Assembly (NCBI GenBank): GCA_961205875.1 | Contig: OY540814.1 | Coordinates: 24,496,151 to 24,560,150, forward strand | From: Sialis fuliginosa | Lineage: Eukaryota; Arthropoda; Insecta; Megaloptera; Sialidae | DNA: 64,000 nt | Direction: 5' to 3' | Shown: positions 1 through 47,648 of the stretch, piece by piece | How positions within the stretch are numbered: position 1 is the first letter of the stretch | Layout: each line of letters begins with the position of its first letter | Made by a program: the position numbers and the translations under genes | Notes under the pieces: model-generated | The model's database searches: none | The model's input: only the letters and a program-made list of their open reading frames with translations | What the model was told of the DNA's origin: nothing

Positions 1-310
1 TTTGATGTTTCGTATATTTAGTATAATATTTTACTAATTTTTTAAAGAAATATTTTGAAAAATACAGTATTTAATAAAATTTGCTATTTTTTGACGTAGA
101 ATTACGAAATATGTCACACTTTAAAGCTTATATCTCTGGATCTAATATTCGCAGAGCAATATATATAAACCAGTAGGTAGCTTATATAGCCCCGTTTATA
201 ACCTTCTATGCAGTATGGAACTATTAGGCTCCATTAGTTTAATTAAATGCATTTTTAATGAATGATTGACTTGATGTCATGATCGTTCCTGAGGGAAGAG
301 GGGGAGAGGG
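1..310. other. AT-rich sequence, nothing recognised
   Basis: Low-complexity AT-rich DNA ending in a short purine-rich stretch (GGGAAGAGGGGGAGAGGG). I see no gene, RNA or transposon end. Confidence 0.4.
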
Positions 311-17094: not shown

Positions 17095-17441
17095 TAAGGC
17101 GGCTATTACACTATCAAATAAATATGTATATGTCAAAGATCTTTGACAAAGATTTGATCATATTTTCTAGGGATATTTTCTTCTTTTTTGGTGTATTTTG
17201 ATTATCAGTGTGTGGCAGTGCGTGAATGTTGTCAGTTGTCACGATCGAGGTTTGAATCGTTTGAATTTACAACCGTGTATTGCGATTATTATAATCACGA
17301 TATTTATATTATATTTATTTATTTATATCATACAATGCTAGATTGGCTTCATATTCTATTATTAATAATTTCGTAGCCGAAATCGTCCACGAAAACTTGT
17401 CAGTCGCCATTTTGATTTATCCGTCAAAAAACTTTGATCAA
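17095..17441. mobile_element. PIF/Harbinger-like MITE, 3'-truncated copy
   Basis: It starts at 17098 with GGCGGCTATTACACTATCAA after TAA, and follows the 1474 copy to AAAAAACTTTGATCAA, then stops abruptly at 17441 where a different repeat begins. The right terminal repeat is missing. The internal sequence has small indels relative to the intact copy (for example ATATGTATATGTC). Confidence 0.75.
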
Positions 17442-17575
17442 CTCGGAATACACTGTATATCTAACTTAAACTAAAAATATACCTAAACATTACTAAACAA
17501 TGTTACTCGATACGTGTTTCAACTTCACAAGAAGTCCTCATCAGAAGCTTAACATTTCCAGTTGTGTATATCTAA
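17442..17575 (-). repeat. Repeat unit carrying a hammerhead fold
   Basis: A distinct sequence begins exactly where the Harbinger-like copy stops. It has ATATCTAA-containing flanks on both sides (TGTATATCTAA at 17453 and 17565). The minus strand contains the hammerhead motif described separately. Hammerhead ribozymes are known from Penelope-like elements and retrozymes, so this may be the remnant of such an element, but I see no reverse transcriptase fragment. Confidence 0.5.
17499..17556 (-). ncRNA. Type I hammerhead ribozyme motif
   Basis: On the minus strand the order is: stem I 5' arm AAUGUUA, bulge AG, CUU; core box CUGAUGA (17538-17544); stem II ACUUC-UUGU-GAAGU with an extra G and a G-U pair; core box GAAA (17517-17520); short stem III ACACGUAU; then the cleavage triplet AUC; then GAG and UAACAUU, which pair back to CUU and AAUGUUA. 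All invariant core bases are present. The predicted cut lies after C (between 17509 and 17508). Stem III is nearly a self-complementary octamer without a loop (one C-A mismatch), as in minimal type I hammerheads that act as dimers. It is a sequence and structure match only; activity is untested. Confidence 0.7.
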
Positions 17576-17884
17576 AATAAATAATATACAATGTAATTTT
17601 GGAAACGGAAATGCGCGTATTTACTGACATGTGTACTTACACATGTTATATAACAACCAGTAGTGCTGCCTTATTTACCGACAGTAGATAAATCAGAGCG
17701 TTATCACATAATTCTTGGATTGTGTTTGAGTTTACTCTCGCTATCAGCTAGTAGTTCTGTTTGCCTGATAAATCAAATGTGATACATAAAATCAATATTG
17801 TATGTTTTGATAATCGTACGATGATGATTATACAATGTGTCTTAATGTTGTCTTATTATGCGATTGATAGGTACAAGTTCGATA
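17576..17884. other. Unassigned sequence
   Basis: Ordinary AT-rich sequence, complexity moderate at 17620-17760. No repeat relative or gene was recognised. Confidence 0.3.
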
Positions 17885-21703: not shown

Positions 21704-23887
21704 TTAGGCGGCTATTACACTATCAAATAAATATGTCAAAGATCTTTGACAAAGATTTGATCATATTTCTTTGATAAAATATGAGATTTTGTTCTATTAC
21801 ACTACATAAAATATTTGATAATATTTTTTCAATATTATCTAGGGATATTTTCTTCTTTTTTGATGCATTTTGATTATCAGTGCTTGGATGTTCGTCAATT
21901 GACGTGATCGAGGTTTGAATTTACAACTGTGTATTGTGGTTTTTATAATCAATAAGAAGATTATCATATAATACTGGCTTTTGTTGATATTCATATATTA
22001 ATAATTATGTAACTGTAACTGTCAGTGATAACTTGGTAGTCGCCATTTTGTTTTTGACGTCAAAAAAAATTGATCAAATGTAAGAGACTGTCATTAACTA
22101 TGATCATAGAAATATTATGAAGGTAAATATTATAGATCTGGAGGCAGCGACCAAATTTGGGCATCATAGCAGCCCGCAAAATTTGTTTTGAAATTTGTTA
22201 ATTGGGATATAGAGAACTCAGCTAAATGGGTCCCATGATCCTAGGACGCTGCCTTTAGATAGGACAGCCCGTCAGTTATGTAAAAAAAAAATAGCCGAAA
22301 AATTTATAGCATCCCCGTCAGATATTTATAAAATTTGAAAATATAGTATCTGACGCCCTAATAGTTGCATTATTTTTTTATAACAATCTAAACATGTAAA
22401 AAAAAATGGCCGATGTAATTATAGCCGCCCGTTAAAAATCTTTTTTAATCGATAGATTTATGTTTCCTGAACATGAAAATAATAGTATCTGACGCCCTAA
22501 TAGTTGCATTATTTTTTTATAACCATCTGACGCCTTAATTGTTTTAAACATGTAAGAAAATAATAAATTATTGAATGTATTTATTTATTTATATTTATTA
22601 TTATTACTATTTATTAAAAAAAACACATAATTTAAAAAATCAAGCCTAGCTACCGCTAGGTTCTGTCGCCGTGCACCTCTTGCACCCCTACTTAAGACGC
22701 CTGAGTTGGGGCAGCTACTTACGGGTTTAAAAATATTTTTTATTTTATATGAGCTATACTAAAAATTATTTCATCTTATTTTACATTCATGTCAATTTTT
22801 TCATAAACCTTTATGAGCAAAATAAAACAACAGTAGTTGGTTTAATTAATAAAAAAATAAATTACAAATTAAAATAATGTGAGAATCTATGCTTAAATCT
22901 AAGCACTTGCGATTATTTTTAAAAATTAGTAATTATCAAGTAAAAAAATATGGAAAATTCGTAAATGTCTCTTTGGTTTGATCCTTATCATACATTTTCA
23001 GAAAAATGTTTCAAGCAAAAGTTGTTTATTTTATTTCTTAAATTAGGAATCTGCAACAAAAAATATAGATTTAGATTTGAAAAAAAGATAAACCTGGGAA
23101 CTCATCAAGGTGACTTTTTCAAGGTCAACCCATAATGTCAATATTTAGCTCTCTCGAAACCATGAAACTTTTAACTGAAACATTTTTTCTAAAAATTCGT
23201 TATTTTGGAAATAATTCGCTGGAAACACGGTATACGGGATTGCCTGACGGGCTCTCCTAATCAAACGCAGCACTTCAAGCGTCAGATATATATATTTTTT
23301 GCATAAGGGAGCATTATACTACAAGATGGTATGCATATCTGACGGGCTGCTAAAAGTTCGTTGCCTCTTTAACATCTTTGTCTCGCTATAAATTAAAAAC
23401 GCAACAATAAAAACGTCAGATATACATTTTTCTATTTTTATAATAATCAAATCAACCTAAATCTTAAATATCTGACGGGCTGCTAAAAGTTTTTTTTTTG
23501 GCATCATTTTTTTTTTTTTAATTCGCTCTAATACACTTAAACAGCGTCGCAGGCGTCAGAAAACTATATTTCCTTGATCTGTGGAACATGTATTTATCAA
23601 AAAGCATCTGACTGCCAGATTTGCTATGAGTCACCCAAGGTCAAAAACTTGACAACTTTGACAGCCCATCGAGGGTTAACGCAACGTATTTTATGACTGA
23701 CAATTTACTTTTCATGTATAACTACAATAAGTTAACAAATTTCATAACAAATTTTGCGGGCTGCTATGATGCCAAAATTTTGGTCGCTGCCTCCAGATCT
23801 ATTATAAAAGTTGACTTATTACACTGTCATATTTCTTTGATCAAAGAAATTTTATCATATTTATTTGATAGTGTAATAGCCGCCTTA
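21704..23887. mobile_element. PIF/Harbinger-like MITE, split by a nested transposon
   Basis: The body is 21707-23884, with inverted ends GGCGGCTATTACACTATCAA and TTA duplications on both sides (21704-21706, 23885-23887). It matches the 1474-1962 copy along both halves, but 1665 bp plus a 7-bp duplication are inserted at 22128-23806. Without them it is about 506 bp, close to the 489-bp intact copy. Confidence 0.85.
22128..23806. mobile_element. Unclassified 1.67-kb transposon nested in the MITE
   Basis: The body is 22135-23799. Its ends read GATCTGGAGGCAGCGACCAA inward from both sides and pair for about 70 bp (next blocks GCATCATAGCAGCCCGC and AAATTTG). TATTATA flanks both sides (22128-22134, 23800-23806) and occurs once in the empty copy near 1876-1886. 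Because the flank is palindromic in part, shorter duplications such as TTA are also possible. Internally, CTGACGGGCTGCTAAAAG-like motifs recur (about 22265 reversed, 23339, 23470) and TCTGACGCCCTAATAGTTGC occurs twice (22351, 22484). No transposase frame. It fits no superfamily I can name. Confidence 0.75.
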
Positions 23888-40986: not shown

Positions 40987-41045
40987 TTCTTTGGCAGAGC
41001 CGGCCTTTGCGATTCTGGCGCCCCAGGCGAGATTTTTTTTGACGC

Positions 41046-43978
41046 TTAAAGATAATAGTGTAAGCTACATTTAAAAAAAAAACTGGAGTCTCTTCGATCG
41101 CGCCAAGCTGAGATATTAACTATTCAATTTACTTCTTTGTTAGCGTATGAGTTTTAATTTGTTTTTTTAGTTTTAACTTGTTTTTAAAAAGGGAAGGAGC
41201 ACGCGAAGGTCTTTAAGTGCGTGATGCTCTTAAAGATAATAGTGTAAGCTACATTTAAAAAAAAAACTGGAGTCTCTTCGATCGCGCCAAGCTGAGATAT
41301 TAACTATTCAATTTACTTCTTTGTTAGCGTATGAGTTTTAATTTGTTTTTTTAGTTTTAACTTGTTTTTAAAAAGGGAAGGAGCACGCGAAGGTCTTTAA
41401 GTGCGTGATGCTCTTAAAGATAATAGTGTAAGCTACATTTTAAAAAAAAACTGGAGTCTCTTCGATCGCGCCAAGCTGAGATATTAACTATTCAATTTAC
41501 TTCTTTGTTAGCGTATGAGTTTTAATTTGTTTTTTTTAGTTTTAACTTGTTTTTAAAAAGGGAAGGAGCACGCGAAGGTCTTTAAGTGCGTGATGCTCTT
41601 AAAGATAATAGTGTAAGCTACATTTTAAAAAAAAACTGGAGTCTCTTCGATCGCGCCAAGCTGAGATATTAACTATTCAATTTACTTCTTTGTTAGCGTA
41701 TGAGTTTTAATTTGTTTTTTTAGTTTTAACTTGTTTTTAAAAAGGGAAGGAGCACGCGAAGGTCTTTAAGTGCGTGATGCTCTTAAAGATAATAGTGTAA
41801 GCTACATTTAAAAAAAAAACTGGAGTCTCTTCGATCGCGCCAAGCTGAGATATTAACTATTCAATTTACTTCTTTGTTAGCGTATGAGTTTTAATTTGTT
41901 TTTTTAGTTTTAACTTGTTTTTAAAAAGGGAAGGAGCACGCGAAGGTCTTTAAGTGCGTGATGCTCTTAAAGATAATAGTGTAAGCTACATTTAAAAAAA
42001 AAACTGGAGTCTCTTCGATCGCGCCAAGCTGAGATATTAACTATTCAATTTACTTCTTTGTTAGCGTATGAGTTTTAATTTGTTTTTTTAGTTTTAACTT
42101 GTTTTTAAAAAGGGAAGGAGCACGCGAAGGTCTTTAAGTGCGTGATGCTCTTAAAGATAATAGTGTAAGCTACATTAAAAAAAAAAAACTGGAGTCTCTT
42201 CGATCGCGCCAAGCTGAGATATTAACTATTCAATTTACTTCTTTGTTAGCGTATGAGTTTTAATTTGTTTTTTTAGTTTTAACTTGTTTTTAAAAAGGGA
42301 AGGAGCACGCGAAGGTCTTTAAGTGCGTGATGCTCTTAAAGATAATAGTGTAAGCTACATTTAAAAAAAAAACTGGAGTCTCTTCGATCGCGCCAAGCTG
42401 AGATATTAACTATTCAATTTACTTCTTTGTTAGCGTATGAGTTTTAATTTGTTTTTTTAGTTTTAACTTGTTTTTAAAAAGGGAAGGAGCACGCGAAGGT
42501 CTTTAAGTGCGTGATGCTCTTAAAGATAATAGTGTAAGCTACATTTTAAAAAAAACTGGAGTCTCTTCGATCGCGCCAAGCTGAGATATTAACTATTCAA
42601 TTTACTTCTTTGTTAGCGTATGAGTTTCAATTTGTTTTTTTAGTTTTAACTTGTTTTTAAAAAGGGAAGGAGCACGCGAAGGTCTTTAAGTGCGTGATGC
42701 TCTTAAAGATAATAGTGTAAGCTACATTTAAAAAAAAAACTGGAGTCTCTTCGATCGCGCCAAGCTGAGATATTAACTATTCAATTTACTTCTTTGTTAG
42801 CGTATGAGTTTTAATTTGTTTTTTTAGTTTTAACTTGTTTTTAAAAAGGGAAGGAGCACGCGAAGGTCTTTAAGTGCGTGATGCTCTTAAAGATAATAGT
42901 GTAAGCTACATTTAAAAAAAAAACTGGAGTCTCTTCGATCGCGCCAAGCTGAGATATTAACTATTCAATTTACTTCTTTGTTAGCGTATGAGTTTCAATT
43001 TGTTTTTTTAGTTTTAACTTGTTTTTAAAAAGGTAAGGAGCACGCGAAGGTCTTTAAGTGCGTGATGCTCTTAAAGATAATAGTGTAAGCTACATTTTAA
43101 AAAAAAACTGGAGCCTCTTCGATCGCGCCAAGCTGAGATATTAACTATTCAATTTACTTCTTTGTTAGCGTATGAGTTTTAATTTGTTTTTTTAGTTTTA
43201 ACTTGTTTTTAAAAAGGGAAGGAGCACGCGAAGGTCTTTAAGTGCGTGATGCTCTTAAAGATAATAGTGTAAGCTACATTTAAAAAAAAAACTGGAGTCT
43301 CTTCGATCGCGCCAAGCTGAGATATTAACTATTCAATTTACTTCTTTGTTAGCGTATGAGTTTTAATTTGTTTTTTTAGTTTTAACTTGTTTTTAAAAAG
43401 GGAAGGAGCACGCGAAGGTCTTTAAGTGCGTGATGCTCTTAAAGATAATAGTGTAAGCTACATTTAAAAAAAAAACTGGAGTCTCTTCGATCGCGCCAAG
43501 CTGAGATATTAACTATTCAATTTACTTCTTTGTTAGCGTATGAGTTTTAATTTGTTTTTTTAGTTTTAACTTGTTTTTAAAAAGGGAAGGAGCACGCGAA
43601 GGTCTTTAAGTGCGTGATGCTCTTAAAGATAATAGTGTAAGCTACATTTTAAAAAAAAACTGGAGTCTCTTCGATCGCGCCAAGCTGAGATATTAACTAT
43701 TCAATTTACTTCTTTGTTAGCGTATGAGTTTTAATTTGTTTTTTTAGTTTTAACTTGTTTTTAAAAAGGGAAGGAGCACGCGAAGGTCTTTAAGTGCGTG
43801 ATGCTCTTAAAGATAATAGTGTAAGCTACATTTAAAAAAAAAACTGGAGTCTCCTCGATCGCACCAAGCTGAGATATTAACTATTCAATTTACTTCTTTG
43901 TTAGCGTATGAGTTTTTATTTGTTTTTTTAGTTTTAACTTGTTTTAAAAAAGGGAAGTAGCACGCGAAGGTCTTTAAC
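41046..43978. repeat. 184-bp satellite-like tandem array, about 16 copies
   Basis: The unit begins CTTAAAGATAATAGTGTAAG and includes CTCTTCGATCGCGCCAAGCT, TTAACTATTCAATTTACTTC and AAGGGAAGGAGCACGCGAAG. Starts recur at 41045, 41229, 41413, 41598 and on to 43806, so the period is 184-185 bp. Copies differ mainly in the length of one A-run and a few single bases (for example GAGTTTCAA instead of GAGTTTTAA in two units). The exact 40-bp block 41006-41045 is repeated at 43979-44018, enclosing the array. The low divergence indicates recent amplification or homogenisation. The last unit is the most diverged, as expected at an array edge. Confidence 0.95.
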
Positions 43979-46235: not shown

Positions 46236-46635
46236 TGGATTAAGTTAGTTTAAAAGTTGGTTATTTTTAAATTTGAAACTAATATTTAATATCCGATTTC
46301 ATAAACGATAGATATCTGAAATATTGCTTCTGTTTTAAGTTTTAAAGAAATATCTTTGGTACAATTTGAGATAAACTATAAATACATATTGTTCTTGAAA
46401 CTGAGCGTTAATTATACATTATTTTATGTTTAAATAATAAATTGACAGGAATTTTTCATTTTAGCGTTTACATAAATTTAGATTTACATTTTTATTTTGT
46501 TTGGTTTCGAGGTTTTAGGTCATTGAAATTGTTATATGTGTTATAACATTATTTATTCATTTAAACGTTTCGTCATTTTTCAGACTTCCTCAGTAACTAC
46601 AAAAACACATTACTTTAGATTTACATTTACATCTT
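46236..46635. other. AT-rich DNA with a GACGAAACG-type fragment
   Basis: Near 46565-46605 the minus strand reads CTGAGGAAGTCTGAAAAATG then ACGAAACG, which resembles a hammerhead core with one extra base (see rejected list). No gene. Confidence 0.3.
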
Positions 46636-46636
46636 A

Positions 46637-47648
46637 TGAAAAATTTCGAATTAATATTTTTTAGTGCCAGGCAATTCATCGGTTTTTATTTAAATTGTTT
46701 GAACTACCTTTGGTGAATTAATCACGAGGAAGTACTGCGCATTTACTTGGCAGATGTTTTTATGAATGGACATTGATTAGTTTTGGAACACGAACGACGA
46801 ACAAGTAGTTTTTAAGTGTGTATTAGGATTATGAAAAATTTCGAATTAATATTTTTTAGTACCAGGCAATTTATCGGTTTTTCATTTAAATTGTTTGAAC
46901 TACCTTTGGTGAATTAATCACGAGGAAGTACTGCGCATTTACTTGGCAGATGGTTTTATGAATGGACACTGTTTAGTTTTGGAACACGAACGACGAACAA
47001 AATTTAGCACGAGGAAGCACTGCGCATTTACTTGGCAGATGTTTTTATGAATGGACATTGTTTAGTTTTGGAACACGAACGACGAACAAAATTTAGCACG
47101 AGGAAGCATTGCGCATTTACTTGGCAGATGTTTTTATGAATGGACATTGTTTAGTTTTGGAACACGAACGACGAACAAAATTTAGCACGAGGAAGCACTG
47201 CGCATTTACTTGGCAGATGTTTTTATGAATGGACATTGTTTAGTTTTGGAACACGAACGACGAACAAAATTTAGCACGAGGAAGCACTGCGCATTTACTT
47301 GGCAGATGTTTTTATGAATGGACATTGTTTAGTTTTGGAACACGAACGACGAACAAAATTTAGCACGAGGAAGCACTGCGCATTTACTTGGCAGATGTTT
47401 TTATGAATGGACATTGTTTAGTTTTGGAACACGAACGACGAACAAAATTTAGCACGAGGAAGCATTGCGCATTTACTTGGCAGATGTTTTTATGAATGGA
47501 CATTGTTTAGTTTTGGAACACGAACGACGAACAAAATTTAGCACGAGGAAGCATTGCGCATTTACTTGGCAGATGTTTTTATGAATGGACATTGTTTAGT
47601 TTTGGAACACGAACGACGAACAAGTAGTTTTTAAGTGTGTATTAGGAT
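46637..47648 (+). repeat. 89-bp tandem array with 195-bp outer units
   Basis: Two 195-bp units (starting about 46637 and 46832) open GAAAAATTTCGAATTAATAT and include AGTGCCAGGCAATT. The second runs directly into seven 89-bp units starting AATTTAGCACGAGG at 47001, 47090, 47179, 47268, 47357, 47446 and 47535. The array closes with AAGTAGTTTTTAAGTGTGTA, which also ends the first 195-bp unit. The unit core GCGCATTTACTTGGCAGATG is the 3' end of repeat E. Units alternate only at a few bases (GCACTGCG or GCATTGCG). Recent local amplification. Confidence 0.93.

What the first reader, a model, noticed from the sequence alone, without database searches (positions are those of the whole stretch)
17499..17556. 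Minus-strand type I hammerhead ribozyme with intact core
All invariant boxes are in order: CUGAUGA, a closable stem II, GAAA, and an AUC cleavage triplet. The outer sequences AAUGUUA and UAACAUU pair as stem I, with CUU/GAG next to the core. The near-palindromic, loopless stem III is what minimal dimeric hammerheads of Penelope-like elements and retrozymes have (established knowledge of those families). It sits in a repeat that begins exactly where a Harbinger-like MITE is cut off, suggesting the ribozyme-bearing unit inserted there.
Basis: partly seen in the sequence, partly recalled or inferred. Interest (0 to 1): 0.85.

Follow-up and report, generated by a model that had tools for sequence, protein, structure and literature searches.

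The report
Decayed Penelope retroelement hammerhead ribozyme fragment
The window holds a worn, 100-base copy of the first part of a mobile element's RNA, including a small self-cutting RNA motif; the element is of a known kind, but its copies in this genome suggest a strict rule for how its two ends are made.

Summary
The motif is real. It belongs to a genomic family (1,727 places within 3 mismatches) of minimal type I hammerheads lying in the predicted 5' UTR of a Penelope-like element (PLE). The window copy is a 100-bp insertion at 17465-17564 (minus strand) with an 11-bp target duplication. It is old: about 85% identical to the consensus, with the C15.2/G16.2 pair lost, so "intact core" is only partly right. 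Rfam scores neither it nor the relatives tried. The MITE claim fails: that repeat ends about 12 bp before the duplication. PLE origin: RT and GIY-YIG-like sequence lies directly upstream of other copies, and 10 of 10 divergent PLE copies fetched, five types, have a hammerhead-like motif with other stems. Hammerheads in PLEs are known. The surprise: 58 of 60 two-armed insertions have one short and one long 3' end; the two exceptions lack a convincing duplication. A second PLE family gives 13 of 13 pairs. This suggests asymmetric twin priming at two fixed RNA sites. Some one-armed insertions exist. Insert 5' ends cluster at a TATA/initiator-like start, not at the ribozyme cut.

The parts
17465..17564 (-). 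whole insertion: truncated PLE 5' UTR (consensus about 5-105), minus strand
   Evidence: aligned copies; flanked by 11-bp duplication
17565..17575 (-). target-site duplication copy 1 (TTAGATATACA read on minus)
17454..17464 (-). target-site duplication copy 2 (TTAGATATACA read on minus)
17499..17556 (-). hammerhead ribozyme motif, type I, minimal
17550..17556 (-). outer stem I, 5' strand AAUGUUA
17545..17547 (-). inner stem I, 5' strand CUU (pairs GAG)
17538..17544 (-). core box CUGAUGA
17531..17536 (-). stem II 5' strand GACUUC (one unpaired G at 17537 precedes it)
17521..17526 (-). stem II 3' strand GAAGUU (closing pair G.U; G-C in consensus)
17517..17520 (-). core box GAAA
17510..17517 (-). 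stem III ACACGUAU (ACACGUGU, a perfect palindrome, in the family consensus)
17509..17509 (-). C17, predicted cleavage 3' of it (between 17509 and 17508)
   Evidence: position in motif; cleavage not tested
17499..17508 (-). stem I 3' strand GAG + UAACAUU
17465..17468 (-). 'short' 3' end (..TTTAAG(T) then target; the last T may belong to the duplication): first reverse-transcription start site
17553..17564 (-). CAACTGGAAATG: junction that may hold the last 8-9 nt of a 'long' end (TACTGGAAA..) joined by CTGGAA microhomology; ambiguous
   Evidence: cf. L017, L024, L075

Best explanation
A decayed, 5'-truncated insertion of a Penelope-like retrotransposon, holding only the part of the PLE RNA between its predicted 5' end and the first internal reverse-transcription start. 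Family layout: ORF stop, TATA box, initiator-like TCAGTC (predicted RNA start), hammerhead at about +10 to +64, start site 1, AC-rich hairpin, start site 2, ATG of the RT/GIY-YIG ORF. Likely mechanism (inferred): the protein cuts both target strands about 12 nt apart leaving 3' overhangs; both 3' ends prime cDNA on the PLE RNA, one at site 1 ('short' end) and one at site 2 ('long' end); each cDNA runs towards the RNA's 5' end and the two are joined head to head. On ordinary mRNA this copies only 105-140 nt, which would give the many hammerhead-only insertions. The ribozyme presumably cuts read-through transcripts of tandem copies, best as a dimer through the palindromic stem III (family level). 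The window copy is probably weak or inactive.
For: Shown: genomic family; RVT_1 E 1.2e-12 in an ORF ending just upstream of the hammerhead; an 854-aa open frame with RVT_1 E 6.2e-15; GIY-YIG the best C-terminal match (below cut-off); 11-bp duplication at the window copy; duplications of 7-15 bp, mean 12.0, in the 49 of 60 two-armed insertions tabulated; 58 of 60 two-armed insertions short+long, 13 of 13 pairs in a second family; TATA about 31 nt before TCAGTC in 18 of 19 upstream sequences; 34 of 112 inner ends at -2..3, 16 of 60 in the set not chosen for the hammerhead; 10 of 10 divergent PLE copies, five types, have sense-strand CUGANGA..GAAA with a closable stem II after the ORF.
Against: GIY-YIG stays below Pfam's cut-off and is missed in the 854-aa frame scanned whole. 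Rfam's hammerhead models do not see the family. The free fold of an intact copy (L106) puts the cleavage strand in another hairpin (z -0.91 for 107 nt, -2.51 for 141 nt). Among 98 copies the hammerhead (0.0234 substitutions per site) is no better conserved than its 3' flank (0.0167; core 0.011). No peak of ends at the cleavage site: 3 of 112 at 57-61; 2 of 60 against 2.0 expected. Stems I and III of the four outlying types were not checked. No cleavage or expression data.
Confidence: 0.9

Rival explanations
1. A metazoan non-LTR retrozyme: a small non-autonomous tandem-repeat element with a type I hammerhead that spreads through circular RNA.
For: Type I hammerhead, AT-rich, short units; one locus has four exact hammerhead copies 176 bp apart.
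Against: The unit is co-linear with a PLE ORF in many copies; in the sample not chosen for the hammerhead, 30 of 40 loci were two-armed PLE-type insertions; ends fall at PLE start sites, not at the ribozyme site.
Confidence: 0.05
2. A chance hammerhead-like string in a foldback DNA repeat or MITE; the inverted arms are terminal inverted repeats.
For: Palindromic two-armed structure; 0.025 chance descriptor hits per window is low but not nil; Rfam silent.
Against: A like motif with other stem II sequences recurs after the ORF in PLEs of 33-54% protein identity, 10 of 10 fetched; the arms differ by a fixed tail of about 35 nt, unlike TIRs, and join at variable inner points.
Confidence: 0.03
3. 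Inverted arms arise by self-priming of one cDNA (foldback), as proposed for rotifer PLEs (PMC3846280, Discussion read), not by two target-primed cDNAs.
For: Head-to-head junctions; arms of one insertion share non-consensus variants more than permuted arms (0.367 vs 0.118 per pair, highest of 500 permutations 0.265; 49 pairs).
Against: A foldback should copy the same 3' end type into both arms; 58 of 60 insertions have different ends. Shared variants also follow from one RNA or one source locus.
Confidence: 0.12

Closest known systems
Hammerhead motifs of Penelope-like elements (Cervera and de la Pena 2014; Lunse et al. 2017; neither held; known here from passages of PMC7761336 and PMC6155905)
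   Same: minimal type I hammerhead in the PLE repeat, stem III reduced or absent, thought to cleave as dimers
   Different: window copy decayed; one unpaired nucleotide between CUGANGA and stem II in every type seen here; whether this is usual in published PLE motifs was not checked
PAc, Poseidon of Anolis carolinensis (PMC11167929; parts 1 and 2 of 4 read, and passages)
   Same: PLE with hammerhead ahead of an AC-rich stem-loop; reverse transcription starts at two adjacent internal sites, the 'tail' lying between them; both target strands cut and extended
   Different: there, in vitro, no difference in start site between top and bottom strands was seen; here the two ends of an insertion nearly always use different sites; here the ORF's ATG lies after the tail (L108), in PAc the ORF starts at hammerhead stem II
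Pen2a_Av of Adineta vaga (PMC3846280; passages, and Discussion)
   Same: inverted pLTR, 9-bp TSD, 31-bp tail at the 3' end of one inverted pLTR, TATA plus Inr-like sequence in the pLTR
   Different: tail described as optional; the word hammerhead does not occur there

Membership tests
Hammerhead ribozyme, type I | CUGANGA and GAAA boxes in order, stem I open-ended | tested here: met
Hammerhead ribozyme, type I | closable stems I and II | tested here: met
   6-bp stem II, 7+3 bp stem I with a 2-nt bulge
Hammerhead ribozyme, type I | paired 15.2/16.2 next to an NUH cleavage triplet | tested here: not met
   window copy: AUC with C15.2.A16.2 mismatch; the consensus has GUC with the pair; 10 of 99 aligned rows, window included, carry A55
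Hammerhead ribozyme, type I | score above Rfam gathering threshold | tested here: not met
   window; 8 related loci; the whole-genome search with RF00163 found nothing, but none of its 14 controls rang either
Hammerhead ribozyme, type I | compensatory stem changes among relatives | tested here: met
   stem II GACUUC/GAAGUC against GAUAGC/GCUAUU of a second family: 3 of 6 pairs changed on both sides; four further types differ again, two with one mismatch. Not tested by a covariation statistic
Hammerhead ribozyme, type I | self-cleavage | not testable with these tools
   needs in vitro transcription
Penelope-like element | RT domain in the ORF next to the repeat | tested here: met
   PF00078 E 1.2e-12 (L061) and 6.2e-15 (L108); no RT in the window copy itself
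Penelope-like element | GIY-YIG endonuclease C-terminal to RT | tested here: inconclusive
   best Pfam match of both C-termini, E 0.0018 and 0.0012, 18.9 and 19.6 bits against cut-off 22.6; GIY..YIG letters present
Penelope-like element | pLTR in inverted arrangement, 30-40-nt tail, TSD | tested here: met
   the window copy itself shows only one arm plus an ambiguous junction
Metazoan retrozyme | tandem repeats of a 150-450-bp unit, circular RNA | tested here: inconclusive
   single unit at the window; one 176-bp tandem locus elsewhere; RNA not testable

The most novel reading that the evidence does not exclude
PLE integration is inherently asymmetric: the two 3' ends of one target break each prime a cDNA, one starting at RNA site 1 and the other at site 2, about 35 nt apart around an AC-rich hairpin. 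The 'optional tail' of PLEs would then be the signature of the second cDNA, implying a protein dimer whose two subunits hold non-equivalent positions on the RNA; the few one-armed insertions would be cases where one cDNA failed or was lost. A bolder extension: the palindromic stem III of the hammerhead serves to pair two template RNAs, with cutting secondary.
Probability: 0.55. Interest if true: 0.65.

Novelty: new member of a known kind. Interest (0 to 1): 0.42.

Why it matters
Hammerheads in PLEs are known; their role is not (PMC7761336 passage). This genome, with 1,393 listed-pattern PLE 3' stretches, turns two open questions into countable ones: which RNA is copied (ends cluster at the promoter-like start, not at the ribozyme cut), and what the PLE tail is (on exactly one end of 58 of 60 two-armed insertions). 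Both constrain models of PLE transposition that the in vitro work left open.

Tried and rejected
Rejected: retrozyme; foldback DNA element; MITE split by the insertion (41 of 44 non-self MITE matches end at 17441, and 17576-17780 has no other listed match). Rejected: ribozyme-cleaved RNA as the main template (no excess of ends at 57-61). A broad run of ends at 57-76 (20 of 112) looked suggestive, but in the sample not chosen for the hammerhead 58-77 holds 10 ends against 8.1 expected. Tried: selection on the ribozyme among copies, none seen. Target asymmetry: C just before the duplication on the short side in 25 of 49, G just after it on the long side in 15 of 49 (A in 25); not taken further. 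RF00163 over the whole genome gave nothing, but its controls did not ring, so it says nothing. Monomer folding does not favour the hammerhead. One translation was in the wrong frame and was ignored. Two searches of solved structures gave only weak matches (best E 0.29 and 0.16), and NCBIfam gave two RT models far below their cut-offs.

Counts and drops: one search was given 90 loci (L001, L009-L047, L058-L107), of which L009/L067 are one place and L083 overlaps L013; an arm was counted only if it reached consensus 95 or beyond. Loci L009-L047 were chosen by similarity to the window's hammerhead, L058-L067 by similarity to an ORF end, L068-L107 by an exact match to consensus 73-104, taken in listed order on contig C1 with one place skipped because it was already held. 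One search used 56 of the 60 two-armed insertions (L034, L062, L073, L096 left out); one search used 49 of 60 (no, short or weak duplication left out); one search used 49 pairs with enough overlap. L073 and L096 are short+long. My note says 19 of 19 for the TATA/TCAGTC spacing; the listing bears 18 of 19 (L009 lacks the stretch).

Full report
OBSERVATION. The minus strand of 17499-17556 has every box of a type I hammerhead in order. A loose descriptor finds it once in the window; 400 simulated windows gave 10 hits, 0.025 per window. Rfam gives nothing at gathering level for the window and no hammerhead at E up to 10 for 17300-17800, and the free fold is not a hammerhead. On the window alone the case would be moderate.

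FAMILY. The window lies in an unnamed 392-Mb genome of 20 contigs. BLAST lists 51 matches, self included; the other 50 cover the hammerhead, part or whole, and most also the about 50 nt after it (40 of 1,257 candidates scored). The alignment of 50 rows gives a sharp consensus: GUC instead of AUC, a perfect palindrome ACACGUGU as stem III, a G-C closing pair in stem II. The family 39-mer occurs at 1,727 places with at most 3 mismatches, reversed control 0; an insertion can hold two such places. The window copy is among the most diverged seen, about 85% identical to the consensus. It has C21T, C45T, G55A and G62A among others. G62A turns a U.G of stem I into U-A, but G55A (16.2) breaks the pair beside the cleavage site. 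Ten of 99 aligned rows, the window included, carry A55.

INSERTION. The element is bounded by TTAGATATACA on both sides (17565-17575 and 17454-17464, read on minus), so it is a 100-bp insertion at 17465-17564. The stretch right of the insertion (17576-17780) matches only itself in that list (40 of 1,094 candidates scored, and the tool warns that no match does not prove rarity). So the repeat was not visibly cut by the insertion.

THE ELEMENT. Upstream of other copies is the 3' end of an ORF. The L061 frame of 462 aa has RVT_1 at E 1.2e-12. Its C-terminus has GIY-YIG as best match, E 0.0018, that of L108 likewise, E 0.0012, both below the Pfam cut-off. L108 holds an 854-aa open frame, about 800 aa counted from the ATG named below. 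The layout read: stop codon TAG, then at once TATAAATA or TATATATA, then TCAGTC with its A about 31 nt after the start of that box (18 of 19 listed upstream sequences; in L009 the TCAGTC stretch is lost), hammerhead, start site 1 (consensus 105), hairpin AGAAAC-CACA-GTTTCT, start site 2 (140). In L108 the sequence after its hairpin leads into ATGGCT of the ORF. That TCAGTC is an insect-type initiator is recalled knowledge, and that the host is an insect was not tested.

OTHER FAMILIES. I fetched the stretch after the ORF of 10 more divergent PLE copies (33-54% protein identity), 10 of the 93 matches of that search. All 10 have CUGANGA..stem II..GAAA in sense orientation. Six of the 10 belong to one family with the same hammerhead, so these are five types. 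Stem II: GAUAGC/GCUAUU, GGGCCGU/ACGGCCC, GACUC/GAGUC, and two with one mismatch. All have one unpaired nucleotide between CUGANGA and stem II, as the window family does. Their stems I and III were not checked by a script; in the six-copy family the letters next to the core (AGACU/AGUCU) can pair. Rfam sees none of the eight loci tried at gathering level, nor a hammerhead at E up to 1 in five.

ENDS. Ninety loci were given to the end count; 60 two-armed insertions came out. In 58 of 60 one arm ends at 99-114 (short) and the other at 127-141 (long). The exceptions are L034 (99/114, best duplication 6 nt) and L062 (109/107, arms 694 nt apart, no duplication). A match of 7 nt or more at both outer ends was found in 56 of 60, and all 56 are short+long; matches of 7-8 nt alone would be weak in AT-rich DNA. 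The sample L068-L107 (40 loci, not chosen for the hammerhead) has 30 two-armed insertions, all 30 short+long, and 10 one-armed or unresolved loci. Against a strict rule: L070 (short only) and L094 (long only) in that sample, and L018 and L033 outside it, have a duplication of 10-12 nt and no clear second arm. In the second family (54% protein identity) one search lists 13 adjacent head-to-head pairs; 13 of 13 are long+short. There the 40 scored candidates were picked for being long, so the independent fact is that 13 of 13 partners are short; 27 of the 40 have no listed partner, one pair (C7:20167829) has extra inner pieces, duplications were not checked, and the short and long ends of that family were read from six copies. 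Arms of one insertion share non-consensus variants more than permuted pairs (0.367 against 0.118), so both tend to come from one RNA or one source locus.

Inner ends (where cDNA stopped): 34 of 112 lie at -2..3, the TCAGTC start, and 3 at 57-61, the ribozyme cut. In the sample not chosen for the hammerhead: 16 of 60 at -2..3 (binomial P 1e-9 against a uniform spread of the 53 ends within -30..100), 2 at 57-61 with 2.0 expected, and 24 of 30 insertions with both arms confined to the 5' UTR. So most of these inserts look like copies of uncut mRNA 5' ends, in line with the PAc result that ribozyme mutants still insert in vitro (PMC11167929).

READING. Shown: family, PLE linkage, duplications, end types, cDNA stops. 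Inferred: promoter use, two target-primed cDNAs, dimer asymmetry, ribozyme role. The published rotifer account explains inverted arms by self-priming and calls the tail optional (PMC3846280); the near-strict short+long pairing fits two priming events at two sites better. I found no statement of such a rule in the passages read or in the listings; the key PLE hammerhead papers were not held, supplements were not read, and it may be in print elsewhere.

VERDICT. The ribozyme is a genuine but worn copy of a known kind. The end rule is the part worth following.

Noticed in passing
about 17097-17441; further copies about 1477-1827 and 21706-22091: MITE-like repeat with many genomic copies, 41 of 44 listed non-self matches ending at the same point; its class (Harbinger) was not tested.
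   Followed up: partly
G000:C1:39236276-39236842 (L046 holds part): Four exact hammerhead copies spaced 176 bp apart with a different spacer: a retrozyme-like tandem array within this family.
   Followed up: partly
41045-43977: Satellite: 184-bp unit, 15.9 copies, 98% matches.
   Followed up: no
46634-47623: Overlapping tandem arrays with 196-bp and 89-bp units, 96-98% matches.
   Followed up: no
211-232: 22 nt, 91% identical to PLE consensus 1-22 (E 0.025); perhaps a remnant, perhaps chance.
   Followed up: partly
L109-L118: Each PLE hammerhead-like motif seen here has one unpaired nucleotide between CUGANGA and stem II, which may be why Rfam misses them.
   Followed up: partly
G000:C10:3223875, 3231241, 3238609 (L064 holds two): PLE 3' ends repeated about 7,367 bp apart with long open frames between them that look Gypsy-like by eye (not searched): a large tandem duplication.
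   Followed up: no
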